Part shown: piece by piece, positions 8,167-38,078 of the stretch
Position numbering within the stretch: position 1 is the stretch's first letter
Layout of the letters: every line of letters starts with the position of its first letter
Made by a program: the position numbers and the translations under genes
DNA from: a virus
Direction: 5' to 3' (one strand)
Length of the DNA stretch: 38,078 nucleotides
IMG/VR virus record: IMGVR_UViG_3300021437_000052
Location: 1 to 38,078 of that record
The notes under the pieces: generated by a model
Databases searched by the model: none
The model's input: the letters and a program-made list of their open reading frames with translations, nothing else
Told to the model about the DNA's origin: nothing

Positions 8167-8279
8167 TAAAAACACAAGTCAAAAAACTATCCAACCTTAA
8201 AAAGAGGATGCGTAGTGCCAAGAAAAGAAAACAATATTACAAACAAAATAATCTAATAATTAAATACAATAAAAAATGA
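8163..8279 (+). CDS. Very basic small protein, 38 aa
   Basis: Begins MIKTQVKKLSNLKKRM and contains about 15 Lys or Arg among 38 residues. It overlaps the previous stop (ATGA at 8163-8166) and the next start (ATGA at 8276-8279), so it is coupled on both sides. That double overlap supports it being translated. It might bind nucleic acid or be a remnant left by insertion of the downstream homing endonuclease. No family is recognised. Confidence 0.5.
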   Translation: MIKTQVKKLSNLKKRMRSAKKRKQYYKQNNLIIKYNKK

Positions 8280-8785: not shown

Positions 8786-8795
8786 AAAAAGAAAA

Positions 8796-10655: not shown

Positions 10656-13600
10656 TTATCCGATAGTCGGACTGCTTGTAGTATAAGTTAAATCTATACT
10701 GAATAACTTGTTGTAGAGAGTGTCGCTGTACTTAAACTTGCACAAAAACCATCTGCTTCTCATAACATTTCCTGTTACGATTGCATTTGGCAAGTATGGC
10801 GGACTTGCTACAATATTTGGGGTGTGTTCATCCATGTAAACCTTAGAATACCAAACGCTTTCTTTCATTTTAAAGTTTGTATTAAGCAAGTGTGTAAACT
10901 GATTTTCTTGGTTGCTTATTTCTGTTACCTCGAATGGATAAATACCGCGCTGTTTGATAGTCTGCAATATCTTGTTGTTTTCGGGGTTGTCATTTACATA
11001 AAACCATATCTCACTTGCATATTGCTCCCCAAACCAATTATTTTGAGTAGTATTTGTATTTTGTGTGTATAATGCACCATATTTGAACGCTACAACATCT
11101 ACTCCGTTCTGACAGAAATAGTCGGGAACATAAGACCATGTTGTTGTAAACTGATTGTATTTCTCGTTAAATTCTATTGTAAGTCCGTTTGCATAATCTC
11201 CCTCTCCGAATGGCGCAACACTTAAAATGTATGTTCCGAAACGGGTATCGTACACTCCAACACAATTTACTTTGGTAGGGTTTGCAAGTATGGCTTTACA
11301 AAGGTTAGCCATAAATATTCGCATATTTGCCTCACTTGTTATATCAACAAGTCCGTCATTACTTAATCGTACAATAGCACTTCTGTAAACGTCTATAAAA
11401 TACTTTCTGTTACCATAGTACGCCCAGCTTTCAGGGTGTTCTCCTATACCAAAATCTTCTAGGTAATAATCTATCTTCTGTTGCGGTGTTAATACCAATG
11501 TTGAACTGCCAACAATACCGCTACCATTAGGACTTTGCATATTCTGTTGCTGTACAAGGATAGGCAACACTTTGTATTGCTGATACGCTTGTAGTGCCTC
11601 GTTCTGATAGAATAGGTAGTTTATGCCCCCGAAACTTGCGTTGTAGTCTTGGAAATTTGTATCGTATATCTTGCTTAATCCGTTTACATTACTGTTTACG
11701 AGTAGTTGTTCGGTGTATAAAACCCTTGCGCCACTTGTAAGTCTTTTTGCTAGGTTGTCAATTCTGTTAGGTCTTCCAAACCAATATGCTTCGGTAGATG
11801 CTAGGGATGTCCAACAATTACTAGCCCATGCTGTTTCGATGTAAGAATATTGGCGGAATGTTGTTCCTAAGTGTTGAAAAGGCATATTACAATATCTTCT
11901 GAAGCAGTCGCCCCCTGTGAATGTTTGCTCTGATGCCCTTACGATTGTTCCGCCTCTATCATCAAAATGCCCGAACATATCCGACCCATATATTCCGTTT
12001 GTGTTGATAGTCAAGTTAGGGTATGCTACCGCACTTACAACGCCATAAACGCTCCAATGATTTAAGTCGTTTGTTATCTTTACTTTGTCGTTTACATGAA
12101 AGTTATCGCCTCCAACTAATCTTACGCTATAATATCCTCCTCCTAAGTCGCCCGAAACGCTAAATGTCTGAAATAATTGATTAACCGTAGGAAGTCCGTT
12201 ATCATTGGGAACATATATTCTATTTCCATTAACATCCGTACCTATCGTTCCCCCCTCACCTACTTCATACATGGTTTCGTTATCGTTCTCAATATCCTTT
12301 GCAGGGGTATAAATTTCAAACAATACGTTCTCCCCTAAATTCTGTGGAACGGTTGGTGTCATCAACATAAGCACTACTCCCGTTGAAGCATCAAAAGACA
12401 ATATTTCGTTATCGTTGAAAGGGAAAAAGGTATCAATAGTATTTGTGTTTACTCGGTTTGCAATAAAACGTATTCTGTCGCCCTTTGTAAATTCGTAGAC
12501 TAGGTTTGATGATGGGTTTTCTGTCTTATATAATCCCGAAATATTCAATATCGTTACCGCAACATAATAAGCGGATGTGGCAGGAGCTGTGCTACCGTCT
12601 AAATGTTCATAATTCGTGCTTTGGCTTGTGAATTGTAAATACCTAGCCATTGCCTGATTTTTACTAGCCATTATGTTGTATAATAGCATATCCGCAGGTG
12701 GTGGGTTGTAGATTAAGCAACTTACCGTTGGCACGTATTCCATGTCTAGGTTTGGAGTAGCGTGTGGTGCTGCATATTCCGCTTCCGTTAAGAATGGTAT
12801 CTTTACCCTTGTTCCAAATATCCCTCTATTGGCTTCCGTTGAATAACCTGCGCGAGTGTTTACGTTACTGATACGTGCCTTGCTATTTGTTCCATAGGTT
12901 ATCTCTTGTCCGAACTCATAAACACCTCCGCTTTTTAGATATTGTACCGCAGGAAAGAAACTATTAGGGTTGGTATAAACCGTTTGGTCGTAGGTAATCG
13001 GGAAACGCATATCTACCTCAAAAGCATCTTGTCCCTCTGTAACATTTGCATCCGCTATTCTGTTTTTAAAGAAAACTAATGCTTTTTCTCTTACAGGCAC
13101 AAAGTCCATAAGTTGAGTGGCATCCGCTAGGTTTACAGGAAGATAGTTGCCATCATTTAAGAAAACGTAGTCGTAGGTTGTATTATCCGCTATTCCTAAT
13201 TCGTCTTTATTAAGCGTTATAACAAGCGATGTGTCGGAAATAGTATCTGTTGCCTGTGTATTTATTTCGTGAGCGTATATGCGAATATCGCGTACATTTG
13301 AGCTTCCTGTGGGTACGGTAATTGTTATTACGTTATCCTGTTGCGTATAATCCTCGCCTGTGGTATTTATAGGGTTAAGTTGTGTTTTAGGAAGTATATA
13401 ATTACTCTTTTGCGACAATACACTTCTCTCTTTATCTTTATATCCCCAATCACATTGAAATTGGTAAAGTCGTTTGTAGTTATAGTTTATTAGGTTTCCC
13501 TCTCCTTTTTGAATAGAAAAGTTGGCTAATGTTGTTCCAAATAAATTTGTTCCCGATGGAGCAATACCTGCATCACAAACCACACTTATTTTATCCCCTG

Positions 13601-14507
13601 CAACTACTGATAGCGTATATGTTGCTGTCTTTACGCCATCAAAGCCATCTTCTACGTCTATAATATGTATAGAGACCCCATTTTTATATATCGCTATTGA
13701 ATCTAAAAAACCACTTGTGTTTTTAGCGTTCATATTAAGAGTTACATAGTACGTTCCTGTGGTAGCCACAAGCCACCAATAATTTGTGGTGTCCCACTCT
13801 GCTCCAACATTAGGGTTTGCTTGGTTAAAAGGAAATGTCTGTGTTGTAGGGTCTGATAAACCTCCTGTTGTTGTGCTTGTAAATATAAAAATAGCATTTA
13901 ACCCACTCCACACATAAGTCGGTGCTGTCGGTGGCTCTTTTATCCTGTCAATAAACTTCGGCAAAAAAGGAAAAGAATATTGACCTGTATATGTTCCCGC
14001 CATGAACAATATCCCTGCCTGTATATTTATCTTCTTTGGCTCATTATACGATACTCCATCTGTCCAATTATCAGTCCAATACAACAACCCCTCATCTACA
14101 TTCAACTGAACAACACAATCGCCCGTTATAAGGTTTGTTTTCTTAAAGTTTAATATCGCTCCCGTAGTTGTTCCCGTTAAATCAAAATCATCTATCAATA
14201 CAGGCACAACACTATTCGTCCTTTCGTTATATTCTAATATTGAGTGCCTATTCTCATCATTCCAAACAAAATAATAAATCTTCTGATTAAGTTTATCCTC
14301 TACTGCTCCGATACATAAATTACTCCCACTAGGTAGCGTATATTCAACCAATGTGTTTCCGTTAGATGTTGTTACCGCACCCGTTGTTCCATCATTATTC
14401 GATAAGATACGCACGTTTTTCAACAAAGGAAAACCTTTATTGTATTCGGGCGTGATATCGCTATCCATCCCTGACTTGTCAAATGTGATTTTTTGATTAT
14501 ACGTCAT
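10656..14507 (-). CDS. Large tail stabilisation-type protein, 1283 aa
   Basis: The N-terminus (DKSGMDSDITPEYNKG, then LKNVRILSNNDGTTGAV) follows the pattern of the large tail stabilisation protein of crAss-like phages, where a GMxxD...P.....MKNVR start opens a long beta-rich protein. The rest is Asn, Thr and Tyr-rich with many short beta segments and no membrane helices, consistent with propeller or sandwich domains around the tail. It is the last gene of the leftward connector and tail operon, following the gp4-like protein, the usual order in these phages. The function is inferred from order and N-terminal resemblance. Confidence 0.65.
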   Translation of the reverse strand: MTYNQKITFDKSGMDSDITPEYNKGFPLLKNVRILSNNDGTTGAVTTSNGNTLVEYTLPSGSNLCIGAVEDKLNQKIYYFVWNDENRHSILEYNERTNSVVPVLIDDFDLTGTTTGAILNFKKTNLITGDCVVQLNVDEGLLYWTDNWTDGVSYNEPKKINIQAGILFMAGTYTGQYSFPFLPKFIDRIKEPPTAPTYVWSGLNAIFIFTSTTTGGLSDPTTQTFPFNQANPNVGAEWDTTNYWWLVATTGTYYVTLNMNAKNTSGFLDSIAIYKNGVSIHIIDVEDGFDGVKTATYTLSVVAGDKISVVCDAGIAPSGTNLFGTTLANFSIQKGEGNLINYNYKRLYQFQCDWGYKDKERSVLSQKSNYILPKTQLNPINTTGEDYTQQDNVITITVPTGSSNVRDIRIYAHEINTQATDTISDTSLVITLNKDELGIADNTTYDYVFLNDGNYLPVNLADATQLMDFVPVREKALVFFKNRIADANVTEGQDAFEVDMRFPITYDQTVYTNPNSFFPAVQYLKSGGVYEFGQEITYGTNSKARISNVNTRAGYSTEANRGIFGTRVKIPFLTEAEYAAPHATPNLDMEYVPTVSCLIYNPPPADMLLYNIMASKNQAMARYLQFTSQSTNYEHLDGSTAPATSAYYVAVTILNISGLYKTENPSSNLVYEFTKGDRIRFIANRVNTNTIDTFFPFNDNEILSFDASTGVVLMLMTPTVPQNLGENVLFEIYTPAKDIENDNETMYEVGEGGTIGTDVNGNRIYVPNDNGLPTVNQLFQTFSVSGDLGGGYYSVRLVGGDNFHVNDKVKITNDLNHWSVYGVVSAVAYPNLTINTNGIYGSDMFGHFDDRGGTIVRASEQTFTGGDCFRRYCNMPFQHLGTTFRQYSYIETAWASNCWTSLASTEAYWFGRPNRIDNLAKRLTSGARVLYTEQLLVNSNVNGLSKIYDTNFQDYNASFGGINYLFYQNEALQAYQQYKVLPILVQQQNMQSPNGSGIVGSSTLVLTPQQKIDYYLEDFGIGEHPESWAYYGNRKYFIDVYRSAIVRLSNDGLVDITSEANMRIFMANLCKAILANPTKVNCVGVYDTRFGTYILSVAPFGEGDYANGLTIEFNEKYNQFTTTWSYVPDYFCQNGVDVVAFKYGALYTQNTNTTQNNWFGEQYASEIWFYVNDNPENNKILQTIKQRGIYPFEVTEISNQENQFTHLLNTNFKMKESVWYSKVYMDEHTPNIVASPPYLPNAIVTGNVMRSRWFLCKFKYSDTLYNKLFSIDLTYTTSSPTIG

Positions 14508-18313: not shown

Positions 18314-18348
18314 TTGCTTACTACTTACCCCTTATCCCCTTAATTTTG
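18314..18348 (+). promoter_or_regulatory. Portal promoter
   Basis: TTG at 18314-18316 within a T-run, 24 bases, TAATTTTG at 18341-18348 followed by CA. The palindrome TAAATTATGTA at 18282-18292 lies 48 bp upstream and is shared with the divergent tail operon. A TTG that would extend the portal frame lies inside this box and is therefore an unlikely start. Confidence 0.6.
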
Positions 18349-18366
18349 CAAATTAAAATACTATCT

Positions 18367-20868
18367 GTGGACGATAAAGACTTTTCATATCCAAATCCTC
18401 TAGCATCTAGGGCAGAAAAGAAAACAAACGCTTATGGGCTAGCATATGCGGAGTTCATATACGCGCAATACTACAAGGTGTCGCCTATACTAAACGAGCG
18501 TACAGCACGTTTTAAAAACAACTTAAAGCATGCCGAAGGATTGCAGTCTATTACAGATGTTCGTACTTTCTATAAAAATAATCAAGGCACTTCGCCATTA
18601 AACCTAGATGTAAGACCTGTAAACTACATATCTAAGATTGTTGATATTATCGTGTCGGTGCTTATGGAGCAACCATTCACCGTTGAATGTAATGCCATTG
18701 ACCCTCAAAGCAAGATTATTGAAAGCGAAATAAAGTCGCGTGTTTATGCCGCGATGCACCTTAAAAAAGTAAATGACAAGTTTAATATCGAAGGTCGCAC
18801 AGGAATATCAATAGTACCGAAAGGGCAACCAATACCCGAAACAGATGAGGAAGCCGAGTTATTCCTTGAACTGCAAGGTAAGGTTGGTTTATCCTTAGCA
18901 ATGGAAGAGGCGATACAATACGTTCTCGATAATAACGATTTTGACTACGAAGTAAAACGTAAGATACTTAGAAACCTTGTAGCGTGTAAAGGGGCGGCTA
19001 TCATGACCGACTACGATGAAAACTACAACATAACGATAACAGCACCCGAATTTTATGATGTTGTTTATCCTTACTCCAAATACGATACCTTTAAAAATAT
19101 TCCTTATGTCGGACTTGTTACATACATGACCATTGAGGAAATAGCATTAAAGGCAAAGAAAGAGGATGGCTCACCACGATATACCGAGAAAGAACTTGTA
19201 GAGATAGCAAAAGCATATCAAGGACAAAACTACAACAACCCTGCTTGGAATGGAACGTGGGGAATGAGTTATGAGGGATTCTATCAAAACTCTACCTTAA
19301 TTAAACCTTTCTATAACTTCAATATTCCTGTTCTTCGTTTTTGGTTTTTGGCTGTTTCGCAGGAAACGCTTGTCAAAACATCCAAACTAGATAAGGCAGG
19401 ACGTGAAAAGATTTACTACGATTGGAAAGCAAAAGGAGCATCAGAAGATAGCACCAATATCAAACAGAACATAGCGGTAAAAGAAAAGGAATGGAGATAT
19501 GAGGGGTATTGGATAATGGGGTCGAAATACCTGTTTAATTACAAGGAAAGCGATGATATTCCACGTGAAAAGATAAAGGGCGGATATAACCCTAAAACAA
19601 CTCTCCCTATCAAAATTATCGCTCCCGACATCTACGACATGGAGAATAAGTCCATTGTAGAGAAAGCAATACCTGCCGAAGAGCAATTAAACCTTATTGA
19701 ACAAAAGATACAGCAATGTGTTATTGAGTTCCGACCAAAAGGGTATGCGCTGAATACCGCAGTACTTGAAGAAATGAAAGCGGGTAAAGGGAAAGATGAA
19801 ACACTAGACCCTGTTGCGCTTCATGACCAATTTACTCAAACAGGAAAGATATTGTATTATGCGGTAATGCAGGATGGTGTTACTCCTGCTAACATAAACC
19901 CGATACAAGACCTGCCAAATGGCTTCGGGGAAGCCTTCGGTGAACTAATGAACTTGCGTATGATGTATATGCAACAGATTAGGGACGTAATGGGATTTTC
20001 AGAAAGTATGGACACCACTATGCCTAGTGCTGAAATGCCGATAGGAACACAGCAGATGGCAAGACAGGCAACTATGAACTCACTTATGGGAACATATAAA
20101 GCCGCAGTAAACTTATTGGAAAGGGGGTTACAGGACGTATCTTTAATGATACAAGACTGTATAGAAAAAGATAGGGATGGATTTATTGCTGCCATAGGAC
20201 AAACAGCAACAAGTGAAATAGAAATGTTCAAACAGCTTCCATTAGCAACTATTGGTGTAAATATAAGAATAGGAAGTAGCGAAGAGGAAAAAGCCAAACT
20301 GAACGAATGGATAGGACTTGATGTTAAAAACTCACTTATAGATAGCGGACAGGCAATAGAAGTACAAGATGCCTTACGTCAGAATGTTAAACTTGCAAAA
20401 GGACTTTTAAGAAAGTTTGTTGCTATGAACAAGAAGATGGCGCAAGACCAACAATTACAAATGGTACAGGCAAATGCACAGACACAACAGCAGTCAGCAC
20501 AGGTAGCAAGTCAGATGAAACAACAGGAGGTGCAGTTGGAAATACAGGGCAAAGGACAACTTATTCAGATGGAATATAGTGCTAAAGATATGTTTGCCGA
20601 GAAAGAGTTTCAACGTGCATACAAATTACAGCAACTTAAAAATCTTGGTTCTAATACAGACAGCGAAATTGCGGCAGGGGGCAAAGTGAATGTACAAGAA
20701 GCGGCTAACAGAGCAAAGATTGTATCATCACAAATAGAGCAGAACACTCAAATTACGAAAGCCCACATCGTGCATCACAGCGACCATAGTAAAATTGAGC
20801 ATCAGAAACAGGCAGATATAGAGTTGCTAGAACACGAACCGCCCGAAAAGAAAGAAGAGAAAGACTAA
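18367..20868 (+). CDS. Portal protein, about 833 aa
   Basis: Forms the dodecameric ring through which DNA enters and leaves the capsid. The GTG at 18367 (MDDKDFSYPNPLA) is preferred over a TTG at 18346, which lies in the promoter box. Portal features: the N-terminal YYKVSPILNERTARFKNNLKHAEG region, the VRPVNYISKIVDIIVSVLMEQPF wing entrance, a long helical stem and crown, and a C-terminal Gln- and Lys-rich coiled coil (after about residue 690) ending in HEPPEKKEEKD. Length suits large podovirus portals. Unlike all other head genes here it is on the plus strand, with its own promoter and terminator. Confidence 0.8.
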   Translation: MDDKDFSYPNPLASRAEKKTNAYGLAYAEFIYAQYYKVSPILNERTARFKNNLKHAEGLQSITDVRTFYKNNQGTSPLNLDVRPVNYISKIVDIIVSVLMEQPFTVECNAIDPQSKIIESEIKSRVYAAMHLKKVNDKFNIEGRTGISIVPKGQPIPETDEEAELFLELQGKVGLSLAMEEAIQYVLDNNDFDYEVKRKILRNLVACKGAAIMTDYDENYNITITAPEFYDVVYPYSKYDTFKNIPYVGLVTYMTIEEIALKAKKEDGSPRYTEKELVEIAKAYQGQNYNNPAWNGTWGMSYEGFYQNSTLIKPFYNFNIPVLRFWFLAVSQETLVKTSKLDKAGREKIYYDWKAKGASEDSTNIKQNIAVKEKEWRYEGYWIMGSKYLFNYKESDDIPREKIKGGYNPKTTLPIKIIAPDIYDMENKSIVEKAIPAEEQLNLIEQKIQQCVIEFRPKGYALNTAVLEEMKAGKGKDETLDPVALHDQFTQTGKILYYAVMQDGVTPANINPIQDLPNGFGEAFGELMNLRMMYMQQIRDVMGFSESMDTTMPSAEMPIGTQQMARQATMNSLMGTYKAAVNLLERGLQDVSLMIQDCIEKDRDGFIAAIGQTATSEIEMFKQLPLATIGVNIRIGSSEEEKAKLNEWIGLDVKNSLIDSGQAIEVQDALRQNVKLAKGLLRKFVAMNKKMAQDQQLQMVQANAQTQQQSAQVASQMKQQEVQLEIQGKGQLIQMEYSAKDMFAEKEFQRAYKLQQLKNLGSNTDSEIAAGGKVNVQEAANRAKIVSSQIEQNTQITKAHIVHHSDHSKIEHQKQADIELLEHEPPEKKEEKD

Positions 20869-25018: not shown

Positions 25019-27103
25019 CTATCTGCTGTTTTGTTTTATCTTGTATTGATGAAAATAGTTGTGGGTAGGGCGTTGTTTTCTCTTTACCTCAAGCACCGCT
25101 TCAGCACCAACCATCCCAACCATCGAAGATACGGACAAGTCAAATGCTCCCCACTTATCTACGTCAAACGCTAACCAATCTTTTAGAGTGTTATTAAATG
25201 GCATATATCCCATGTCGCCCGTTTTCTCGTTATATCCGCAATGATTAGTTATCCAACTTGCCATATACTCAACCAACTGATTTCGTGTCTTCCCCTCTGT
25301 GTTGGCAAGTCCTCCATCTATATTCTTTGTAAGACTATCAATATAATCATCATTTGTCATGGACGGAGAAGGCAATATGTATTTGTGATAATCTCTGTTT
25401 CGGAAATAATCATTACAATTCTTGATGTTTCTTTCGGGCATTAAACCCCAACCAAAATACACACAACACATTATCATGTCTTCATATACTAATAGAGGGT
25501 CTTTCGGGCGACACCAATATTCGGAAATGAAATGCTTGTGTTTTATCGGGTGCATTACATCGTACTTCTTTACTCCATGCGAAGCCGCTTTTGATTGTCT
25601 TTTAGGGTCAACGGTATTTACTGCCGCGAAAGGGTCTAATGTGAACAATCCTATATGATTGTTTGCGGGGGATTTATACCTGTCGCGACCTAATATCCAT
25701 TGGTTACGTTGCTGTTCGGGCGGAAACCAAGAGAAACACCATCTCGACAGAGGGTTATCCTCTGAAGACTTTACCCATTCGACTTGACCATCTCTTACCC
25801 CATTCCTCCATTGGAAATAACCAAATTCTAATGTATTTTCTATGACATGAATATCGTTATGTTCTATCTGCTGATATATCTTTTCTAAATCCCAAACAAC
25901 TTTTTCGTTGGCAGGATTAGCAAACATATCGTCTTCGGTTAAAGGAAACTGCCTCTTAAACTCGTAATACCCTATTGTGTCGCCTTTATCTTTTCTTGCT
26001 TTTAACTCATCTAATATCCATTGTCTAGCTCCCTTTTTTATCAACTTGCCATCAATACCCATGATAGGTTCGTCAGGGGTTTCTATAACTGATGCACCGT
26101 ATTCATCCACGAATCCCTCCATTCCATCACAACTAGGAACAAAGTATCGCCATAGTCCGCTTAATGTACGCCCGTTCTCTGTGAGTTGCGAATGCAGTGA
26201 ATTATCCCAAATGGACTTAAATCCCTCTCCCCCTTTCTTTGTTTCGTTTACCGTTGAGCCGAAAAACATTTTCCCTATTATCGTGCCTCCAAGCACCAAG
26301 CACGTCCTTCCTATACTAAACCATTTTTCAACTGATACATCAACGGGGAATTTACCACTTTCATCAACCGCCACAATCTTCAATTTCATACCATCGTATG
26401 CGTTCTCTTTTGTGTTTCGCCAATCAATGTAAGTATTTAACGAAATCTCTTTTACCGTCTTTCTGTTTTTATATGACACTCGCTTTTGAGGCGTTTTAAA
26501 AACCAATTCCTTTTTTACATCTTCCGCACTTGCTACCTGTGGCTTAAAGAAGTCTGGCAATTCGATAAATCCATGAACGAGTTTATTAAACATCTCCTTT
26601 GCATCTTCTCCTGTTTTGGATATGATTCCGTATTTTGAATTGAATGTTTTTCTTGCTCTGTTTAGTATGATAGAATCCACCCTGTAAGAATAACCATCCC
26701 TCCTTAACTTTCCGTATGCCTGTCCTAAACACTCCTCATTGGTATCGCATAGATGCCAATGGTAAAACCAACGCCTATCTCTATCGCGGTAATCAGGATA
26801 ACCGCTATCAATCATAAACCAATTAAGATAAAAATAATGGTCGCCTGTTATATATGTAGGAACACCTTTTATGAATATCCAAATTCCATCAGTACACTTT
26901 CTGTCCTCTTCCTCTGCAAACCTTAATTGTTCATCTGATGATAAGTCCTCCCAATTTTCAGGCAGTTCTGTTCTCTTCCACTTTTGGTCTTTGGTTTGCA
27001 GTTCAAAGTTTTTTATTTGCTTAACAGGCGGCTGTTTGGGTAGAGTATATATCAACCCTTTGTATAAATCTATTACCCCACCAAACTGATTATTGTTTTC
27101 CAT
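25019..27103 (-). CDS. terL: Terminase large subunit, 694 aa
   Basis: The DNA-packaging motor: N-terminal ATPase and C-terminal RNase H-like nuclease. The N-terminal region has GVPTYITGDHYFYLNW and DRDRRWFYHWH, characteristic of crAss-like terminases. A degenerate Walker A appears as KLRRDGYSYR (about 131-140), and Walker B as LKIVAVDESGKF with the catalytic Asp-Glu near 245. The nuclease part has FTLDPFAAV (first Asp), LLVYEDMIM (middle acidic) and DKWGAFDLSVSS (last Asp). It overlaps the upstream gene by 14 bases. Family call is confident; the headful or site-specific cutting mode is not decidable. Confidence 0.88.
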   Translation of the reverse strand: MENNNQFGGVIDLYKGLIYTLPKQPPVKQIKNFELQTKDQKWKRTELPENWEDLSSDEQLRFAEEEDRKCTDGIWIFIKGVPTYITGDHYFYLNWFMIDSGYPDYRDRDRRWFYHWHLCDTNEECLGQAYGKLRRDGYSYRVDSIILNRARKTFNSKYGIISKTGEDAKEMFNKLVHGFIELPDFFKPQVASAEDVKKELVFKTPQKRVSYKNRKTVKEISLNTYIDWRNTKENAYDGMKLKIVAVDESGKFPVDVSVEKWFSIGRTCLVLGGTIIGKMFFGSTVNETKKGGEGFKSIWDNSLHSQLTENGRTLSGLWRYFVPSCDGMEGFVDEYGASVIETPDEPIMGIDGKLIKKGARQWILDELKARKDKGDTIGYYEFKRQFPLTEDDMFANPANEKVVWDLEKIYQQIEHNDIHVIENTLEFGYFQWRNGVRDGQVEWVKSSEDNPLSRWCFSWFPPEQQRNQWILGRDRYKSPANNHIGLFTLDPFAAVNTVDPKRQSKAASHGVKKYDVMHPIKHKHFISEYWCRPKDPLLVYEDMIMCCVYFGWGLMPERNIKNCNDYFRNRDYHKYILPSPSMTNDDYIDSLTKNIDGGLANTEGKTRNQLVEYMASWITNHCGYNEKTGDMGYMPFNNTLKDWLAFDVDKWGAFDLSVSSMVGMVGAEAVLEVKRKQRPTHNYFHQYKIKQNSR

Positions 27104-28743: not shown

Positions 28744-29451
28744 ATGGCAGATATGACACAGCAGATTAGTAATTGGGCAGGAGGCGGAGCATCGGTTACT
28801 GAAGGAGCAGTACAACTAGGACTAGGGTTGATAAAGAAAAGGCAAGCTGACAAGATGTATCACCAATACGACATCCCTCCCGAAATACAACAAAATCTCA
28901 ATCAGGCAAACATAGAGGCTTTGAAAGGATTACCCCTAGAACAGAAACAAGAGTACCTTAATAACTTACAGAAGTCAAATGCTTATTCATTGAGTTCATT
29001 GGGTGATTTGAATGCAGGAATAAGAGGTGTTGCAGGAGCAAATGAGCAATTTAATCAAGGGTACGATAAATTACTAGGAGCTGATAGTGCCGCACGAATG
29101 GCTAATCAAGACAAGTTGTATGGATTGCGAAACGAAATGGCGGATTACAAAGATAAATCTTGGCAGTTTAATGTAAAAAATCCGTATGATGAAAAGAGAT
29201 TAGAGGGCTTAGCTTTACAAGGCGCAGGAATGCAGAATATGTCGCAGGGTTTTCAGCAAGGAAATACAGGAGGAAATCCGTATGGTAGTACATCGGAGCA
29301 AAATCGAGCAAAATCACAACAACCCCTCCCTCCACAATATAATGATGCAGGTAATTTTTATAACTATAACCCGTATAGCAATAAAGGCGGGGCGGTAAAC
29401 CAAACTCCATACGATTATGGGTATGGTTTAGATAGAACTGTAACAGCGTAA
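28744..29451 (+). CDS. Ejection / internal virion protein candidate, 235 aa
   Basis: The N-terminus (SNWAGGGASVTEGAVQLGLGL) is Gly-rich and weakly amphipathic, followed by a Gln/Asn-rich helical region (PPEIQQNLNQANIEALKGLP) and a disordered Gly/Asn/Tyr/Gln tail. This matches small internal proteins of podoviruses (T7 gp14 position and composition) that are ejected and inserted into the host envelope. It is the first gene of the rightward block ending in a giant protein, the same order as gp14-gp15-gp16. The assignment is by composition and order. Confidence 0.55.
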   Translation: MADMTQQISNWAGGGASVTEGAVQLGLGLIKKRQADKMYHQYDIPPEIQQNLNQANIEALKGLPLEQKQEYLNNLQKSNAYSLSSLGDLNAGIRGVAGANEQFNQGYDKLLGADSAARMANQDKLYGLRNEMADYKDKSWQFNVKNPYDEKRLEGLALQGAGMQNMSQGFQQGNTGGNPYGSTSEQNRAKSQQPLPPQYNDAGNFYNYNPYSNKGGAVNQTPYDYGYGLDRTVTA

Positions 29452-29453
29452 AT

Positions 29454-30965
29454 ATGTATAATAACACATCTATCCCAGCTTCCGAACTTTACGGCATAGG
29501 CAAAGGGCTTGCACAGGTAAACGACCCTAAGATTTGGCTTGAACAACAAAGGATGGGCGAGGAACGCGCGCAAAGGCAAGAGGCAGAAAAAGAACGTGCC
29601 GCAAAAGCTATTCACGAAGATATGCTTTCTAGGTTGAGCAAAATTAAGGACGGGGCAATACGAACAGAAGACCAACCCGAAGCGGCACAACGAATTAATG
29701 ATTATAAAAAATTAGTTCAAGGGATATATGCAAATGCAAAAGGGGGGCAATTAGGAGTAGATGACGAATTAAAATTGCAACAAGGGCTTAATGGTCTTAA
29801 TACGTGGACTGATAATGCATCAAAACAAGCGCAGTTGATACATCAAGTTGGGGCAGAATACGATAAGAATGATGTTCGTTATGGTGGCTCGTGGAACAAA
29901 GATGAGTTTTTAGATGCCGCAACAAAACCGATGAGTGAATGGAAAAATCAAGACATAACATCTTATTTGCCTATTCCAAAAAAAGATTTAGACCAAGAGT
30001 TTTTAAAAGCCAATAAAGACTACTTCAATAGCAATAATATTGCAAGTGTCGCGTACGACCCATCAGGGCAATTAAAAATAACGACAATTACTAATCCCGA
30101 TTTGGTAGAGCAAAGAAAAAATCAGTTTTTTAATGACCCAGATGTACAGGTGCAATTACACATGGCATCCACAAAATTACCTAAAACATCGGAGTTTTCA
30201 GATAAAGGAGGTGTGCCACAGGGATTAAAGACAAGAGAAGATTATTTACAGCAAGTAGGAACACCCGATGAGTTTTTTGATTATAGAAAACTATTTAATG
30301 ATAAGGTTACTTATGGTGGAATAAAAAAGGAATCGTTCAAACAACCACCACCGCCTTCCTCAATAGGAGGTGCTACATTCTCTCAAACACTACCTGTATC
30401 ACATGAAGTAGATGCTAATGGTAATGATATTTATACCACTAAGTTTGGCGACAAAGGAGTATTAGTTCCTTTTGATGGAAAGAATGAGTTGGTTACAAAC
30501 GCTACATACAATACTATTACAGACCCTAAAACGGGTAAAAAGGTAGTGGTTGGAGGAACAGCAACAGTAGCAAAAAATTCAGATGAGAACGATAAGTTGT
30601 TGGCAAAGTTTAATGAGGACGAGAAAAAGATACAGGAAAGAATTGATAAGTACGATGCCGAAAATCAGCCATTACCAACAGATAAGGAAGAATATCATTT
30701 AGCATACAGAAATAAGATGATGGACTTCGCAAAAGAAAAGCGAGAGTTGTATAATAATTACAAAAAGGCATTACAGGTAACTACAAAACCATTAGACGAA
30801 ACACAGGCGAAGGACTTGTTTACTTCTACTCATAAGGGTAATGTAAATCAGATGGTGAATGGTGTTCCTTTGTCGGGAGTTAAGGTAGTGGATAATAGAG
30901 CAAAGGCAACCTCTGAAGCACCGAAAGGGGAGGCGAAACCTAAAAAGGTTATAAAAGGATTTTAA
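29454..30965 (+). CDS. Internal virion / ejection protein candidate, 503 aa
   Basis: A hydrophilic, largely helical 503-residue protein. Residues 15-70 form a charged coiled coil (WLEQQRMGEERAQRQEAEKE), 75-260 are mixed, and 370-440 another coiled coil (DKLLAKFNEDEKKIQERIDK). The C-terminus is Lys-rich (KPKKVIKGF). It is 2 bases downstream of the previous ejection candidate and was probably next to the giant gene before an endonuclease gene was inserted between them. The role is inferred from the order. Confidence 0.5.
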   Translation: MYNNTSIPASELYGIGKGLAQVNDPKIWLEQQRMGEERAQRQEAEKERAAKAIHEDMLSRLSKIKDGAIRTEDQPEAAQRINDYKKLVQGIYANAKGGQLGVDDELKLQQGLNGLNTWTDNASKQAQLIHQVGAEYDKNDVRYGGSWNKDEFLDAATKPMSEWKNQDITSYLPIPKKDLDQEFLKANKDYFNSNNIASVAYDPSGQLKITTITNPDLVEQRKNQFFNDPDVQVQLHMASTKLPKTSEFSDKGGVPQGLKTREDYLQQVGTPDEFFDYRKLFNDKVTYGGIKKESFKQPPPPSSIGGATFSQTLPVSHEVDANGNDIYTTKFGDKGVLVPFDGKNELVTNATYNTITDPKTGKKVVVGGTATVAKNSDENDKLLAKFNEDEKKIQERIDKYDAENQPLPTDKEEYHLAYRNKMMDFAKEKRELYNNYKKALQVTTKPLDETQAKDLFTSTHKGNVNQMVNGVPLSGVKVVDNRAKATSEAPKGEAKPKKVIKGF

Positions 30966-30970
30966 AATAA

Positions 30971-31651
30971 ATGAAAAAACACTTGCATATATTAATTGTA
31001 TTTTTTACTTTTGTGCCATCATTAATAGCAGTTGCCGATGCTAATAAAAACAATATTAAAAACGATTACTCCTTAGTAGCTCGGCAAGGCGAACAGGGGC
31101 AATCGTTTTCTTTTTCTATGCAAAAAATATATTTATATGCAGGACGTGGTAGCCAAAGTAAGCCAACCGAAAATTATGTTTTAGTAGATGATAGAGATTA
31201 CGCATATCTCAATCAATTCAAATGGGGATTAATGAAATTGTATCATTGCGATAACCCTATTACTTATGCGCGAAGATACGAAACTATTGATGGTAAATAT
31301 ACCGCAATATTAATGCACAGAGTTATTCTTGGGCTAAAGGGAAGATGGGAGCATGGCGACCATATCAACGGAAACACAATGGATAATACAAGAGATAATT
31401 TGCGTATTGCCACTCACACAGAGAACATGAGAAACAGAAGACAATTAGTAAAGAAGGGGACTTCGAGATATAAGGGCGTTTCTTTTCATTCAAGTAAGTA
31501 TAACACTATAAGGTATTGGGTAGCGCATATAAAAGTTGATGAGGGGGATAAAAGAGCAAAATTTGACAACGAAATCAGTGCAGCTCGTCAGTATAACCTG
31601 TGGGCGATTCAATACAGAGGACAGTTTGCTAATATTAATATATTACCGTAA
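30971..31651 (+). CDS. HNH-AP2 homing endonuclease with an unusual signal-like N-terminus
   Basis: HNH part at about 115-156 (MHRVILG, GDHINGNTMDNTRDNLR, TENMRNRR) and AP2 part at about 165-222 (SRYKGVSFH, YWVAHIKV, AARQYNLWAIQYRG). The enzyme proper probably begins near Met50 at 31118 (MQKIYLYAGRGS). Residues 1-23 (MKKHLHILIVFFTFVPSLIA...) look like a signal peptide, followed by a short polar stretch, unrelated to the other endonuclease here. It shares TAATG with the giant gene. The insertion site is between two virion genes. The N-terminus may be a captured gene fragment, or translation may start at Met50. Confidence 0.8.
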   Translation: MKKHLHILIVFFTFVPSLIAVADANKNNIKNDYSLVARQGEQGQSFSFSMQKIYLYAGRGSQSKPTENYVLVDDRDYAYLNQFKWGLMKLYHCDNPITYARRYETIDGKYTAILMHRVILGLKGRWEHGDHINGNTMDNTRDNLRIATHTENMRNRRQLVKKGTSRYKGVSFHSSKYNTIRYWVAHIKVDEGDKRAKFDNEISAARQYNLWAIQYRGQFANINILP

Positions 31652-34600
31652 TGGACGATAAAACAAAACTGCTATACGATGCTGTTTCTAAAGATTATGA
31701 TGTAGGAACATTTGATGAATTTCAATCAAAACTTGCTGATCCCGAAAAGAGGAAGGCGTTTTATGATGGAGTAGGGCAAGAGTATCAATTAGGTACTTTT
31801 GATGAATTTAACAGCAAGATAGACAACGGAGTGAAAAAAAAAGCCCCTATGTCAAATTCGCAAATTGGTGGCGGAAACACGCCCACAAGCGGTTACGAAT
31901 CAGAAACCCTTTCTACTTCGAGTAATCAAACTCCTCCGACTAATTTCGTTCAAAAAGATGCGTTAAAAAACGCCCCCGAATACCACGACCACACACTTAC
32001 AAAACAAAACTTAGCAGGTTTCTTTGATAATAATATTTCCGAAGAGGGCAATGTTAATAAGGAACTTCCTCAATGGCATAATAGTTTTGACCCTGAAACA
32101 AATAAGGTAGCGAAACAAATACAGGGCGGTATTGAACAGGCAGACGTTGTGCATAAACAAGCATCTGAAAAGATACTTAATAATCAAAAGACTCAAGAGA
32201 ATATTATTAATCAGATAAACAATCCCAACACACCGCAAGATGTTAAGGAGCAGTTGGCTATGCAATACAAGGATATTGAATTACAAAATGTTCAAAACAA
32301 TGTGGTTGCAACAAAGGCGAAATTACAATCAGTGCAACTTAATAATGACAAGCAACATCTTTTAACTGCTCAACAAAATGTGGATGACCAAATATATAAT
32401 ATGGGAGTACATCCATTGGATGCAATGGGAACATTTGTAACGAGTGTTTATAACGGAGTTATTCCTGCGGTTGCAAAGAGTGTTGGTACAATTACTAAAT
32501 TGATTGGCGAAGCCCCGATAGCGAATGGTTTGCCATCACTTTCTGATATATCGAATGATGTTAATCAGGCAGGAGTTGGTTATCTACAAAAGGAAATAGA
32601 GAAAGAACAAGACCCTGCTAAAAAAGCACAATTACAGAAAGCGCAGACAGAGTATGCGAAATTACAGCCCGTTACCGATGTTATTGGAGATAAGTTAAAA
32701 GAGTTTGGAAATGATATGACAGCTTCGGGAAGCGTTTATCACCCCGAAAAACACGAGTTGGCTCAATCAGTTGGTGGACTTGTCGGCACAATAGCACAGA
32801 TAGGTTTAGGAACAAAAGAACTTGATTTGGGTGCTAAGGGAGCGCAGGTGATTACCGCTATAACATTCGGTGCTGATGGCGCAAATAACGCTTACGATGA
32901 GGCAACAAAGGCAGGACTTAAAGGACAGGACAGAACGAATTATACATTAGCGAGTGGTTTAATTAATGGGTCAATGGCTTATCTCCCTGCTGGGAAGTTT
33001 ATAGAAAGCGTTGCAGGAGAGAAATTGGCATCTTCAATGATGAAAGAAACGCTTGACAAAGTTGTAAAAGGTAATTTGACAGGGGATGCTATTTTTGATG
33101 CCGCGAAAGAAACGATAAAAGATAAGGGGCTTGATATAGCAAAGGAAACGGGAAAGAGTCTTGTTGAGGCAGGAGTATTTGGTTTAGCACAAGGAACAGC
33201 CGACTATGCTAAAAAGAAAGTAGCGAATAAAGTATTGGGTCGTGATGCCTTTGAGGCGCAACCACAGGATATAATCAATACCGCAAAGGAAATGATGACA
33301 GGGATAGGTATTGTAAGTTTATTCACCCATACACTAGGAAAGGTTGGTAGTTCAGATGCGGCATTGTACGATAAAGTAGTTAGTTTGGGAAACAATCCAA
33401 ATGAGGCAAAGAAGTTTAATGAGTTGTTGGATGCTAAGGTAAAGGCAGGGGATATAACACCCGAACAGGCAATGCAGGTGGGAGGAACATTTAAGGCGAT
33501 ACAAGAAGCCGACAAGTCTATTCCCGCTACGATAACGGATAAGGCAAAACGAATAGAGGCGATAAACCTTATTGCTGAAAGGAATAGTTTGGCAAAGGAG
33601 AATTTGGCATTGCAGGAAACAAAAAAGACATTAGACCCTGCGTTTAATGATGTTCACGATAAGGATATTTCCGAGAATGATGCCAAGATTGATAAGATAA
33701 ATTCTGACTTAAAGTTAATTGCTAATGGTGCAGAACGTACAGAGATGAAGCGTAAGGACTTAACACCAACAACAGAAATAGCGACACCCGAAGTTGCGAA
33801 AGAAACCGTACCCCCTACTTCCGAGCAGGTAGTAGCCGACAAGGTGGAGGAAACTCCCCTTGTTTCACCCGAAACACCAAAGGTTGAGGAGGCAAAGGTT
33901 GAAACACCCGAAGTTGTAAAACCTGAAATTAATTACAAAGGACAGCACAAAATTATAAGAGATGAAGAAAGCACAACAACCCTTGACGATATGACTAAAG
34001 GCGGGCGAATAGCCCCTGATGACTTTTATACACATACACATTTTTATTATGATAGAAATGATAAAGCAAGCAGAGAGAGTGTTGAAAAAATAAAGGCAAC
34101 GAAGGGAAAGCCAGAAGCTACAATAACAATATATAGAAGTGTACCAAAAGGGATTGAAAAAATAAATGAAGGGGATTGGGTAAGTTTATCTCCTACCTAT
34201 GCAAAAGAACATGGCAGACACCATGAAGATAAAAAACTTGACATGCCTGTTATTAAAATGAAAGTAAAAGTAAAAGATGTTATTTGGGATGGAAATGATG
34301 TGAATGAGTTTGCTTATTTTCCTAAAGATAAAGCTGAAACACCCGAAACCAAGCCGACCGAAGTTGTATCGGAAACCCCGAAAGCAAACAAACTTTCCGA
34401 TGATGATATTATTGCATCATTTACAAATCATACCAAAGGCAATACCATAAGTTACACTAAAATCGAGGATGTATTAAGTAAGAATAAGAACCCTAATTTA
34501 GATGGATTGACTGCTGATGACGTAGTAAAAGCCTTTGGAGATAAGATTAAGGTTACGGGGAAGCCTGATGGGGAAAGTGGGAAAGTTGAGGTTAAAAAAG

Positions 34601-37600
34601 AAACAGAGCCTTTCGATGGGAAAGATTATACCAAAGGAAAAACAAGTCAAGAGATAGCGGATGAGAAAGGGTTACAATTAAACGAACACGAGCATCTTCG
34701 CCATATTGCGGAAGAAAGCCAAAACCCTATGGAGTTGGCAACTGAATACCTTAAATTAAACACAGAAACCGCACCGAAGCAAGTTATGGCAGAGGCTTTT
34801 CACGACCATAACGTTACTCTTCGTAATGATGAGTTTGATAGATATTTTGATAAGAATAATAAGAATTACACTACCGCAAAACAATTTATAAGAAAAGACG
34901 GAGTGCCTTTAGATAACAAGCTAAAAGAACTGTCCGAGATATATGGCGTTGAAATGACACCACAAGATTTTGTAGATTATATAAGGCAACAACAATACAA
35001 ACAATTTTCGCCAAAAGAAATTCCGATAAGAACAAAGTTCAAAAATAGATTCGCAGAATTGACCGATGGTAAAGATTTAACACCTAGATTTGCACGCCAA
35101 ATAATAGAAGCGCAACTTAAAAAAGAAAATAAAGACTATGAAAAATACATCAACCAAGAGTTTAAATCAAGAGCAGAAGCCGAAAGCGAGTACTACAAAC
35201 AAATTGCAAACGGAACAATCAATATCGAGGGATATGAAAATGTTAGCAATGATGTCGGCAATAAACAAGGCGAAAAAGGACAGGGTAGTACTTCCAAAGT
35301 AAAGCCAACAGAAACCGCCCAACTCGGAGAGCAAAAAGTAATTCCCGAACAAAAGCAAGAGAAACTTTCTGCGAAGGAGTTGAGGGATAAAAGAGTGCAA
35401 GAAGTTTTACAGGCACGAAAAGAACGAAAAGCAAATGAGCAAAATCTTAAAGATTTAGGACGTTCTGATATTAAACAAGGAGGATTGCTCTCTGACGAAG
35501 ATTTCAAAGACTTTAAAGCCATTGCAAAAGCACACCTAGACTATCTAGGAGATGTTACAAAAGCATCTATCAAATCAGCAATAGATTATGCAAAAGAAAC
35601 GCTAGGGATAACAGACTTGCATGATGATGATTTAGGTAAAGTAAATTCAGAATTAGAAGGAAAAGATTTCGGAATGTCGCATAACAAGATTGATGCAGAA
35701 CGTGAAGAAATGAAACTTCCTCCTATTATCAAAACAATGTTTGATAAAAATGAAGAGATTGGCAGACACGCAATGGAAGAGGTACAATCATCACCCGAAC
35801 TACCTAGTATAATAGCAGACGACATTATTGATGCAGGACAAGGTGCTGAAATATCATTACGCAAACAGGCGATACTTGCTTTAGGTAGAGTTTCTGTACA
35901 CCATGAACTAGGAAAGGTTATTGATGCTATTAATGAAGCAAGAGCAAAAGGGCAACCACAAGCAATTATTGACGGATTATTAAAAGCAAAAGAAGGGTAC
36001 GAAGTAGCGAGAGATAAATACGACAAAGCTCTTAATGTTGCAGGGTCTATTTGGGGTAAATTCGGTAACTTTAGACAGATGATTGCGGATGAAAAATATT
36101 CATTCAAATCAGTTGAACGCGACTTTGAAGCGAGTGTAGGTCGTAAGATGACAAGTGCCGAAAAGAAAGAGTTTGAAACTATTATTGCAGACCTTAAAAA
36201 AGTAAACGAGGATAAGGATGCTGAAATAAAAAAGTTACAGGAGAAAGCACTAAAAAAGAAATCAGACAAAACTATTTCTGATGCCGAAACAGAACACAAG
36301 GCAAGTCCTAAGCGCAAAGCCGAAGCAGACAAAATTCGTAGTGAATATAAAAAGAAAGTAAAAGATTGGGATGTATCAATATACGAAAGCGCAAAGTCTG
36401 ATATGGTTGCGGAACGAGTTGCTAAAGGTAGAGAGAAAGGGCAAAGTATTGATACCACTATTGATAAACTTGTTGAGGAAGGACAGATTAAAAAAGAAAA
36501 TGCACCACGCATAAAAAAGGACTTTCACGATTTGTTGGGAGAGAAATCAAAAGAGGAATTGACTAAAGATGCTTTGGATGCTCACAAAGAAGGAGGTATA
36601 GAATCAAAGAAATTTAGGGATGCCACAAAAGAACTTGCTAAAACTTATTTTGGACAAGGATTGACTGCTGATGAAATTACATCTAAGGTAGCGAATGATT
36701 TAGGATTAGAACAAAAAGATATTCAAAAGGCAATTAGCGGTTATGGTATTCCTGTAATGACTAAAAAGGCGATTGATACAGAGATGCAGAATTTAAAGTC
36801 GGCATCACAGATTGCTATTAAAATAGAGAAATTAAAGAACGATGAACCAATTACAAAATCTGTACAAAAAGCAAAGAATGATGAGATAACAAAGTTGCAG
36901 GAACAATATAAAGGAGAGATTCTAAAAAAGAAAATTACTGAAGCAGAAAAGGGGTATGAGAAAAAAGAGAAACAAGCAAAGAAAGAAGAGGCGCAACAGA
37001 TAAAAGACCTAAAAAAGCAACTCGATAATATTCGTAAGGCAAACAGAATGTCTATGGAAGCACGTAACGACAGATTTATAGAGAACGCTAAAAAACGTAT
37101 CGAGAAGTTACAGGAAATGCTTGACACAGGAAACTTTGATGTAAAAGCGGAACAACCGCCACCTCTTACAATGTCAGATGCCTCAAAAGCACTTGACCTT
37201 AAAGAACGTCAGTTACAATCAAAGATTGACAAGAAGATACGCGATGAACGCGATGCCAACAAACCAAGACTTCAAAAGATTGGACAGGCAATTACCGACT
37301 ACTACCGAAGTGCTAAATTAGTTGCCTTTGGAGTATATGGAAAGTTATTCTCTTACGACTTAGCAACTGCTATAACAAAGTCCTTAGAAAATGTTTCCGC
37401 AACTATTGACCAAGAGAGATTTCCTAAACTATACGACAAGTCCGTAGTTGAAAAAGCATCTACCGCAAAGGAATTGTGGGATGATTACTACAAACACTTT
37501 GCAGATAAAGAAACTCGTACTGCTATCAAGCAGAAATTACAAAATCTAACCTCTGACTTTGAACATGAGTTTGGCGACCAACTAGAAAAACAATTTGGTA

Positions 37601-38078
37601 AGAATTGGATTGGACAAACACACTTAGCAGTTAAGATGCCATTGCTTATTGCAGAAACAAAACTCGCATACTCTAAACTATTGCGCGATGCTAGGGATAA
37701 CGGAATGAATCCCGACAATGAGTTTGACCAACAGCAAATGAAAGAATTTGCAGTAGCACAAGGTTACGATGCTATTCTTATGGGCGACAATAAAGTTTCG
37801 GAGGGAATAAGATGGCTAAAGAATTTAGGCGATAAAGAGGGTGCTAGTGGACTAGAGGCAACTGTTTCTTTCCTTACAAAATTTCTTATTCCTATTGATA
37901 AGATACCAAATAACTTTGTATTACGTTCTGTTCAGTATTCTCCTTTCGGACTTTTGAAAGGGGAAATGATGGCGCATAAAGCTGAATACGGGAAACCTTC
38001 GCCCGAAATGGTTGCAAGTGGAATAAACGACTTATACAGGGCGGTAGATGGGTTAAGCCAAGAAGATGCCACCAAGAT
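31651..38078 (+). CDS. Giant polyvalent virion protein with ADP-ribosyltransferase-like domain (partial, over 2142 aa)
   Basis: Open from ATG 31651 to the window end, no stop. Residues 9-57 hold two tandem repeats (DYDVGTFDEF and EYQLGTFDEF). Residues 250-510 alternate Gly/Ala-rich amphipathic helices. Residues 705-770 are a Pro/Glu/Val linker. Residues about 770-891 look like an ADP-ribosyltransferase: TIYRSVPKG (Arg829), GDWVSLSPTYAKEHG (841-855), NEFAYFP (885-891, Glu886). Further linkers, then FGMSHNKI and WGKFGNFRQM segments typical of polyvalent mobile-element proteins, long Lys/Glu coiled coils (1511-1850), and a hydrophobic YYRSAKLVAFGVYGKLF region (from 1885). Probably ejected with the DNA, like T7 gp16 or T4 Alt. 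Confidence 0.75.
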   Translation, partial: MDDKTKLLYDAVSKDYDVGTFDEFQSKLADPEKRKAFYDGVGQEYQLGTFDEFNSKIDNGVKKKAPMSNSQIGGGNTPTSGYESETLSTSSNQTPPTNFVQKDALKNAPEYHDHTLTKQNLAGFFDNNISEEGNVNKELPQWHNSFDPETNKVAKQIQGGIEQADVVHKQASEKILNNQKTQENIINQINNPNTPQDVKEQLAMQYKDIELQNVQNNVVATKAKLQSVQLNNDKQHLLTAQQNVDDQIYNMGVHPLDAMGTFVTSVYNGVIPAVAKSVGTITKLIGEAPIANGLPSLSDISNDVNQAGVGYLQKEIEKEQDPAKKAQLQKAQTEYAKLQPVTDVIGDKLKEFGNDMTASGSVYHPEKHELAQSVGGLVGTIAQIGLGTKELDLGAKGAQVITAITFGADGANNAYDEATKAGLKGQDRTNYTLASGLINGSMAYLPAGKFIESVAGEKLASSMMKETLDKVVKGNLTGDAIFDAAKETIKDKGLDIAKETGKSLVEAGVFGLAQGTADYAKKKVANKVLGRDAFEAQPQDIINTAKEMMTGIGIVSLFTHTLGKVGSSDAALYDKVVSLGNNPNEAKKFNELLDAKVKAGDITPEQAMQVGGTFKAIQEADKSIPATITDKAKRIEAINLIAERNSLAKENLALQETKKTLDPAFNDVHDKDISENDAKIDKINSDLKLIANGAERTEMKRKDLTPTTEIATPEVAKETVPPTSEQVVADKVEETPLVSPETPKVEEAKVETPEVVKPEINYKGQHKIIRDEESTTTLDDMTKGGRIAPDDFYTHTHFYYDRNDKASRESVEKIKATKGKPEATITIYRSVPKGIEKINEGDWVSLSPTYAKEHGRHHEDKKLDMPVIKMKVKVKDVIWDGNDVNEFAYFPKDKAETPETKPTEVVSETPKANKLSDDDIIASFTNHTKGNTISYTKIEDVLSKNKNPNLDGLTADDVVKAFGDKIKVTGKPDGESGKVEVKKETEPFDGKDYTKGKTSQEIADEKGLQLNEHEHLRHIAEESQNPMELATEYLKLNTETAPKQVMAEAFHDHNVTLRNDEFDRYFDKNNKNYTTAKQFIRKDGVPLDNKLKELSEIYGVEMTPQDFVDYIRQQQYKQFSPKEIPIRTKFKNRFAELTDGKDLTPRFARQIIEAQLKKENKDYEKYINQEFKSRAEAESEYYKQIANGTINIEGYENVSNDVGNKQGEKGQGSTSKVKPTETAQLGEQKVIPEQKQEKLSAKELRDKRVQEVLQARKERKANEQNLKDLGRSDIKQGGLLSDEDFKDFKAIAKAHLDYLGDVTKASIKSAIDYAKETLGITDLHDDDLGKVNSELEGKDFGMSHNKIDAEREEMKLPPIIKTMFDKNEEIGRHAMEEVQSSPELPSIIADDIIDAGQGAEISLRKQAILALGRVSVHHELGKVIDAINEARAKGQPQAIIDGLLKAKEGYEVARDKYDKALNVAGSIWGKFGNFRQMIADEKYSFKSVERDFEASVGRKMTSAEKKEFETIIADLKKVNEDKDAEIKKLQEKALKKKSDKTISDAETEHKASPKRKAEADKIRSEYKKKVKDWDVSIYESAKSDMVAERVAKGREKGQSIDTTIDKLVEEGQIKKENAPRIKKDFHDLLGEKSKEELTKDALDAHKEGGIESKKFRDATKELAKTYFGQGLTADEITSKVANDLGLEQKDIQKAISGYGIPVMTKKAIDTEMQNLKSASQIAIKIEKLKNDEPITKSVQKAKNDEITKLQEQYKGEILKKKITEAEKGYEKKEKQAKKEEAQQIKDLKKQLDNIRKANRMSMEARNDRFIENAKKRIEKLQEMLDTGNFDVKAEQPPPLTMSDASKALDLKERQLQSKIDKKIRDERDANKPRLQKIGQAITDYYRSAKLVAFGVYGKLFSYDLATAITKSLENVSATIDQERFPKLYDKSVVEKASTAKELWDDYYKHFADKETRTAIKQKLQNLTSDFEHEFGDQLEKQFGKNWIGQTHLAVKMPLLIAETKLAYSKLLRDARDNGMNPDNEFDQQQMKEFAVAQGYDAILMGDNKVSEGIRWLKNLGDKEGASGLEATVSFLTKFLIPIDKIPNNFVLRSVQYSPFGLLKGEMMAHKAEYGKPSPEMVASGINDLYRAVDGLSQEDATK
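34123..34323 (+). other. ADP-ribosyltransferase-like domain core
   Basis: Encodes residues about 825-891 of the giant protein. The R-S-E style order is visible: strand with IYRS (Arg829), the GDWVSLSPTYAKEHG segment (Ser845 and Ser847), and NEFAYFP with Glu886. This order is known from phage ADP-ribosyltransferases within polyvalent proteins. The residues are present, so the domain may be active. Assigned by motif only. Confidence 0.6.

What the first reader, a model, noticed from the sequence alone, without database searches (positions are those of the whole stretch)
34063..34325. ADP-ribosyltransferase-like domain in a probable injected giant protein
IYRS, GDWVSLSPTYAKEHG and NEFAYFP occur in the order of the R-S-E ADP-ribosyltransferases found in phage polyvalent proteins. 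The carrier follows two ejection-type genes and exceeds 2142 residues. T4 Alt is the known precedent of an injected transferase that modifies host RNA polymerase. Linkers on both sides suggest a self-contained effector module.
Basis: partly seen in the sequence, partly recalled or inferred. Interest (0 to 1): 0.7.

Follow-up and report, generated by a model that had tools for sequence, protein, structure and literature searches.

The report
Unrecognised phage ADP-ribosyltransferase family in virion protein
A short-tailed phage that probably infects a Bacteroidetes bacterium carries, inside a giant protein that looks built to be injected into the host, a widespread but mislabelled domain that very probably is an enzyme of the ADP-ribosyltransferase kind, of a family that none of the libraries searched names as such.

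Summary
The motifs are real and are not chance. They lie in a ~130-residue domain (residues ~763-892 of a ≥2142-aa ORF that runs off the contig end). IMG/VR holds at least 242 loci with it, and 167 phage records match. Over 67 diverse members Arg829 and Ser847 are invariant; Glu886 is Glu in 64 and Gln in 3. AlphaFold2 models of two members put these residues at the end of strand 1, just after strand 2 and just before strand 5. Every listed PDB structural match of both models is an ADP-ribosyltransferase (ART) fold, although Z is only 2-6. No Pfam or NCBIfam model or solved sequence matches; PHROGs calls the family 'ParB C-terminal domain'. Profile comparison with known ART families was not significant, so kinship rests on fold and site.

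Yet this domain does occur in genuine polyvalent proteins, three times beside an H-Y-D ART-PolyVal domain. In the window's carrier, a related contig shows both ends conserved and the middle, with the ART, replaced, within a three-gene block syntenic with virion proteins of Cellulophaga phages. Injection is likely; activity and target are untested.

The parts
31651..38076 (+). Giant carrier ORF, at least 2142 aa, no stop before the contig end
   Evidence: contig is a 38078-base virus record
31651..31845 (+). N-terminal ~65-aa tag made of two ~30-aa repeats; homologous to a short separate structural protein (phi46:3 gp119, phi19:3 gp128) and to the N-termini of other giant proteins
   Evidence: 65% identity to phi46:3 gp119, E 6e-28; 78% to L132; PHROG 24532; BKO1-TP3 5553-aa protein
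33748..33930 (+). Linker before the domain (residues 700-760), 80% P/E/T/V/K/S
33937..34326 (+). Predicted ADP-ribosyltransferase-fold domain, residues ~763-892
34129..34140 (+). IYRS in predicted strand 1; Arg829 (34135-34137) invariant in 67/67
34171..34215 (+). GDWVSLSPTYAKEHG: predicted strand 2 then helix; Ser847 (34189-34191) invariant, Tyr850 and His854 66/67
34303..34323 (+). NEFAYFP; Glu886 (34306-34308) immediately before predicted strand 5; Glu in 64/67, Gln in 3
34327..34404 (+). Linker after the domain (residues 893-918), 73% P/E/T/V/K/S
37777..37917 (+). C-terminal stretch (residues 2043-2089) weakly conserved with the L132 giant protein
   Evidence: 36% identity over 47 aa, E 0.008
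28744..29451 (+). 235-aa protein, first gene of the block; homologue in L132, same position as virion structural genes phi46:3 gp117 / phi19:3 gp126
   Evidence: 39% to L132 254-aa protein, E 5e-28; synteny
29454..30965 (+). 503-aa protein, second gene of the block; homologue in L132, same position as virion structural genes phi46:3 gp118 / phi19:3 gp127
   Evidence: E 6e-7 to L132 496-aa protein; synteny
30971..31651 (+). HNH endonuclease gene inserted between the block and the giant gene; absent at this place in L132
   Evidence: Pfam HNH_3 5e-8; PHROG 99; L132 gene order

Best explanation
Residues ~763-892 form a compact domain of the ADP-ribosyltransferase (ART) superfamily with an R-S-E-like active site (Arg829, Ser847, Glu886), belonging to a widespread phage family that the libraries searched do not recognise as ART. 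It is one cargo module in a giant virion protein whose ends are conserved and whose middle is exchanged between phages. Likely working: the protein is packed in the particle, enters the host with the DNA, and the ART uses host NAD+ to attach ADP-ribose to a host macromolecule early in infection. Shown: sequence, conservation, fold resemblance, domain context, cargo exchange. Inferred: catalysis, packaging and injection. Target unknown.
For: Conservation of the three residues over 67 members. Window domain model pLDDT 92, pTM 0.85: Arg at the end of strand 1, Ser just after strand 2 at the start of a helix, Glu just before strand 5; catalytic Glu at the start of strand 5 is the ART rule as stated in PMC12340436. 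All 21 PDB entries with Z >= 2 for the window model are ART folds, best Z 4.1, rmsd 2.8 A over 79 residues. A second member modelled separately (L069, a solo protein) again gives only ART folds in its 50 listed rows: KptA Z 5.7, Arr 5.0, TreTu 4.7, diphtheria toxin catalytic domain, PARPs. Same polypeptide as ART-PolyVal, MuF_C, PBECR3, SLT, LPD38, LPD39, LPD23 or ADPrib_exo_Tox in relatives. Virion-gene synteny, N-terminal tag shared with a structural protein, middle swapped in L132.
Against: Foldseek gives no PDB hit better than about E 0.1 and all Z stay below 6, a range that can mean only a common arrangement. Profile-profile comparison with ADPrib_exo_Tox, ART-PolyVal and T4 ModA/ModB is no better than controls. 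No Pfam, NCBIfam or PDB sequence match. Side-chain geometry could not be inspected (no coordinates). No proteomics of this phage; solo versions in mycobacteriophages lie among non-structural genes, so the family is not bound to virions.
Confidence: 0.7

Rival explanations
1. The domain is an ART fold that consumes NAD(P)+ (glycohydrolase) or modifies nucleic acid, rather than modifying a host protein as T4 Alt does.
For: Structural rows include Tse6 (NAD(P) glycohydrolase toxin, my knowledge), KptA (RNA 2'-phosphotransferase) and RNA- or protein-modifying Rhs toxins in one tied band; the motif is close to the mixed R-Y-E site of the RNA-modifying RhsP2 (PMC12340436), since Tyr850 is nearly invariant too.
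Against: Nothing favours one substrate class over another; Glu is kept in 64/67.
Confidence: 0.35
2. The carrier is an internal virion protein that stays in the envelope channel or capsid, and the ART domain is a structural or regulatory remnant without activity there.
For: Synteny with three-gene internal-protein blocks of podoviruses; in L132 the whole middle is different and no ART was found there, so this cargo is not obligatory; Gln replaces Glu in three members.
Against: Arg, Ser, Gly-Asp and, in the window, Glu are intact; a structural remnant would not keep exactly these positions over 67 members from many phages.
Confidence: 0.2
3. The family is a ParB-like or other nuclease/nucleotide-binding domain, as PHROG 2579 and several phage records label it.
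For: Label 'ParB C-terminal domain' in PHROG 2579 and in mycobacteriophage records.
Against: No ParB fold among the PDB rows of either model, no Pfam ParB match; the solo mycobacteriophage proteins that bear the label consist of this domain alone. The label is most likely an annotation carried over.
Confidence: 0.03

Closest known systems
ART-PolyVal (Pfam PF18760), ARTs of phage polyvalent proteins, H-Y-D site (Iyer et al. 2017, PMC5512222)
   Same: ART-superfamily prediction; module inside giant phage proteins with MuF, LPD and other domains; occurs in the same polypeptide as this domain in three genomes
   Different: Site H-Y-D with YHGT and QIKSA motifs against R-S-E here; no Pfam match; no detectable profile similarity
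T4 Alt/ModA/ModB (Alt/VIP2 and Mod families, R-S-E clade)
   Same: R-S-E order; Alt is packaged and injected with the DNA
   Different: No significant profile similarity to ModA/ModB; Alt itself not compared; carrier is a multi-module podoviral giant protein
ADPrib_exo_Tox-like ARTs (Pfam PF03496)
   Same: YR in strand 1, S after strand 2 before a helix with A, E near strand 5; L094 carries both domains
   Different: STS and E-x-E signatures absent; profile comparison not significant
PHROG 2579 ('ParB C-terminal domain')
   Same: Same family: E 9.5e-29 over 761-895
   Different: Its label is not supported by fold
Compact ART folds KptA, Arr, TreTu
   Same: Best structural rows (Z 4-6) for the second model
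   Different: 5-15% identity; substrates differ

Membership tests
ADP-ribosyltransferase superfamily | Split beta-sheet ART fold | tested here: met
   All listed PDB rows of two family models are ART folds; caution: Z 2-5.7 only
ADP-ribosyltransferase superfamily | Three site residues at strand 1, strand 2 and strand 5 | tested here: met
   R829, S847, E886 conserved and at those secondary-structure positions
ADP-ribosyltransferase superfamily | Site residues converge on an NAD pocket | not testable with these tools
ADP-ribosyltransferase superfamily | NAD-dependent activity | not testable with these tools
   Needs an enzyme assay
ART-PolyVal (PF18760) | Match to the Pfam model | tested here: not met
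   No match for the window domain or any of 20 members
ART-PolyVal (PF18760) | H-Y-D active site | tested here: not met
   R in 67/67 at the strand-1 position; definition from PMC5512222
Alt/VIP2 and Mod ARTs (R-S-E clade) | R-S-E residues | tested here: met
Alt/VIP2 and Mod ARTs (R-S-E clade) | Sequence-profile kinship | tested here: inconclusive
   hhalign with two T4 sequences, ModA and ModB, no better than controls; T4 Alt not compared
ADPrib_exo_Tox (PF03496) | Match to the Pfam model | tested here: not met
   No match; profile comparison not significant
Polyvalent proteins (carrier) | Several distinct catalytic or effector domains in one phage polypeptide | tested here: inconclusive
   The window's carrier shows no second recognised domain; relatives of the domain lie in clear polyvalent proteins
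Injected virion protein | Present in the particle and delivered | tested here: inconclusive
   Synteny and N-terminal tag shared with genes annotated as structural; no proteomics
ParB C-terminal domain (PHROG label) | ParB/sulfiredoxin fold | tested here: inconclusive
   Not among the PDB rows; no Pfam ParB match

The most novel reading that the evidence does not exclude
An undescribed ART family with an R-S-E-like site, widespread in phages and in a few bacterial and archaeal assemblies and hidden under a ParB label, is used as an exchangeable early-infection effector in genuine polyvalent and ejection proteins, where only H-Y-D ARTs were thought to occur.
Probability: 0.55. Interest if true: 0.6.

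Novelty: new variant of a known kind. Interest (0 to 1): 0.48.

Why it matters
Hundreds of phage proteins labelled hypothetical or ParB would become testable predicted ADP-ribosyltransferases. The solo ~130-aa forms in mycobacteriophages that grow on Mycobacterium smegmatis are directly assayable. The swapped-middle architecture of the podoviral giant protein shows where such phages keep early effectors.

Tried and rejected
Pfam, NCBIfam, PADLOC and PDB sequence searches of the domain gave nothing usable; the weak Pfam rows on the carrier (TFIIA_gamma_N, ORF239-like) are below their cut-offs and were dismissed. hhalign against ADPrib_exo_Tox-like, ART-PolyVal-like and ModA/ModB sets did not separate from reversed-sequence controls. 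ModA and ModB scans of IMG/VR returned only near-identical copies. T4 alt was not in the T4 stretch fetched. A scan with the C-terminal 270 residues of the carrier found no relatives, and the 503-aa neighbour found none among phage records. A toxin-antitoxin reading (Arthrobacter L106 domain followed by a weak HTH; Bask21 gp133 followed by a gene annotated HTH) was not supported: the two HTH parts are unrelated by BLASTP and Pfam support is weak. Foldseek against PDB alone was too weak, and no ParB fold was among the PDB rows.

Full report
The window is a whole 38,078-base virus record. Its terminase resembles those of Flavobacterium, Cellulophaga, Tenacibaculum and Maribacter phages, and its portal those of the same groups except Tenacibaculum. 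These are short-tailed flavobacterial phages such as Pachyviridae, so the host is probably a Bacteroidetes bacterium (inference).

Observation. ORF 31651-38076 (+) has 2142 codons and no stop before the contig end; no long open frame at the other contig end obviously continues it. The unit is residues ~763-892, flanked by linkers that are 80% and 73% P/E/T/V/K/S.

Family. Pfam and NCBIfam do not know the domain; PHROG 2579, labelled 'ParB C-terminal domain', does. It occurs in at least 242 IMG/VR loci, 167 phage records, most of them mycobacteriophages, two Arthrobacter plasmids and 16 loci in bacterial and archaeal assemblies. In mycobacteriophage Bask21 it is a complete 129-aa protein. In 45 complete IMG/VR carriers the ORF length ranges from 154 aa to over 3500 aa.

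Site. Over 67 diverse members Arg829, Gly841, Asp842, Ser847 and Ala851 never change; Tyr850 and His854 are 66/67; Glu886 is Glu in 64 and Gln in three.

Fold. The window domain model has pLDDT 92 and pTM 0.85. Arg829 ends strand 1, Ser847 follows strand 2 at a helix start, Glu886 precedes strand 5. All 21 PDB entries with Z >= 2 are ART-superfamily folds, the best Z being 4.1 with rmsd 2.8 A over 79 residues. CNFy residues 576-684 and TreX are counted as ART folds from my own knowledge. A second, separately modelled member, the solo protein L069 (pLDDT 86), gave 50 listed entries, again all ART folds, the best being KptA at Z 5.7. Each Z is low; the weight lies in the uniform result from two family members plus the positions of the conserved residues. 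Against it, profile-profile comparison to three ART groups did not rise above controls, so I claim the fold and an R-S-E-like site, not descent from a named family.

Iyer et al. [quoted passage not shown] The present domain nevertheless shares polypeptides with ART-PolyVal, MuF_C, PBECR3, SLT, LPD23, LPD38, LPD39 and ADPrib_exo_Tox. In three genomes the domain and ART-PolyVal lie in one ORF (G001, G042, G053). It is thus a second ART-like group in such proteins, if the fold call is right. Whether the later survey PMC9503650 counted it under some family name could not be checked, because its supplements were not available.

Carrier. The first 65 residues are 65% identical to phi46:3 gp119, a 102-aa protein annotated as structural, and similar to phi19:3 gp128 and to the start of a 5553-aa protein of Bacteroides phage BKO1-TP3 annotated as DarB-like. 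In phi46:3 and phi19:3 the tag gene follows two genes of ~228 and ~507 aa annotated as virion structural and precedes a giant virion protein. The window has 235 and 503 aa, an HNH endonuclease gene, then tag and giant protein in one ORF. Contig L132 has 254 and 496 aa then a 2482-aa giant protein; all three are homologous to the window's, but the giant proteins match only at residues 1-130 (53%) and weakly at 2043-2089. The middle, where the ART sits in the window, is different. This is the pattern of a delivered protein with conserved ends and exchangeable cargo; packaging and injection are inferred.

Mechanism. Most likely the domain transfers ADP-ribose from NAD+ to a host macromolecule early in infection. 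NAD+ consumption or nucleic-acid modification are open rivals, and Tyr850 makes an R-Y-E reading like RhsP2 possible. The target is unknown and RNA polymerase is only an analogy with T4 Alt.

Noticed in passing
window 18346-20868 (+) against 25019-27103 (-): The portal gene lies on the strand opposite to the terminase and several genes away, whereas in L132, phi19:3 and elemo phages portal and terminase are adjacent and co-directional: an inversion or translocation within the structural module, or an assembly join.
   Followed up: partly
window 7339-10487 (+): A GroEL-like chaperonin (563 aa, PHROG 5725, E 1.5e-105) and a possible GroES-like gene (7339-8166, E 0.0014) with an HNH endonuclease gene (8276-8785) between them; elemo phages also carry GroES/GroEL.
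   Followed up: no
window 30971-31651 and 8276-8785: Two HNH endonuclease genes whose best match is PHROG 99, one placed directly before the giant gene and overlapping its start codon.
   Followed up: partly
window 10656-14507 (-): A 1283-aa virion protein whose C-terminus weakly matches the crAss-like phage muzzle C-terminal domain (Pfam PF25729, E 3e-5, just under the cut-off).
   Followed up: no
L070:5391-14018: A 2876-aa Mu F-like protein carries this domain and, at its C-terminus, a stretch resembling a canonical R-S-E ART (LYRG ... SSFS ... SEFVV), read by eye.
   Followed up: partly
L108, L110, L113 (Sinomonas): Solo chromosomal members with Gln in place of the catalytic Glu, perhaps inactive forms.
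   Followed up: no
phi46:3 gp119/gp120 and phi19:3 gp128/gp129 (L118, L169): The N-terminal tag that is fused to the giant protein in the window and L132 is a separate small gene just upstream of the giant gene, in another frame in phi19:3: gene split or recoding.
   Followed up: no
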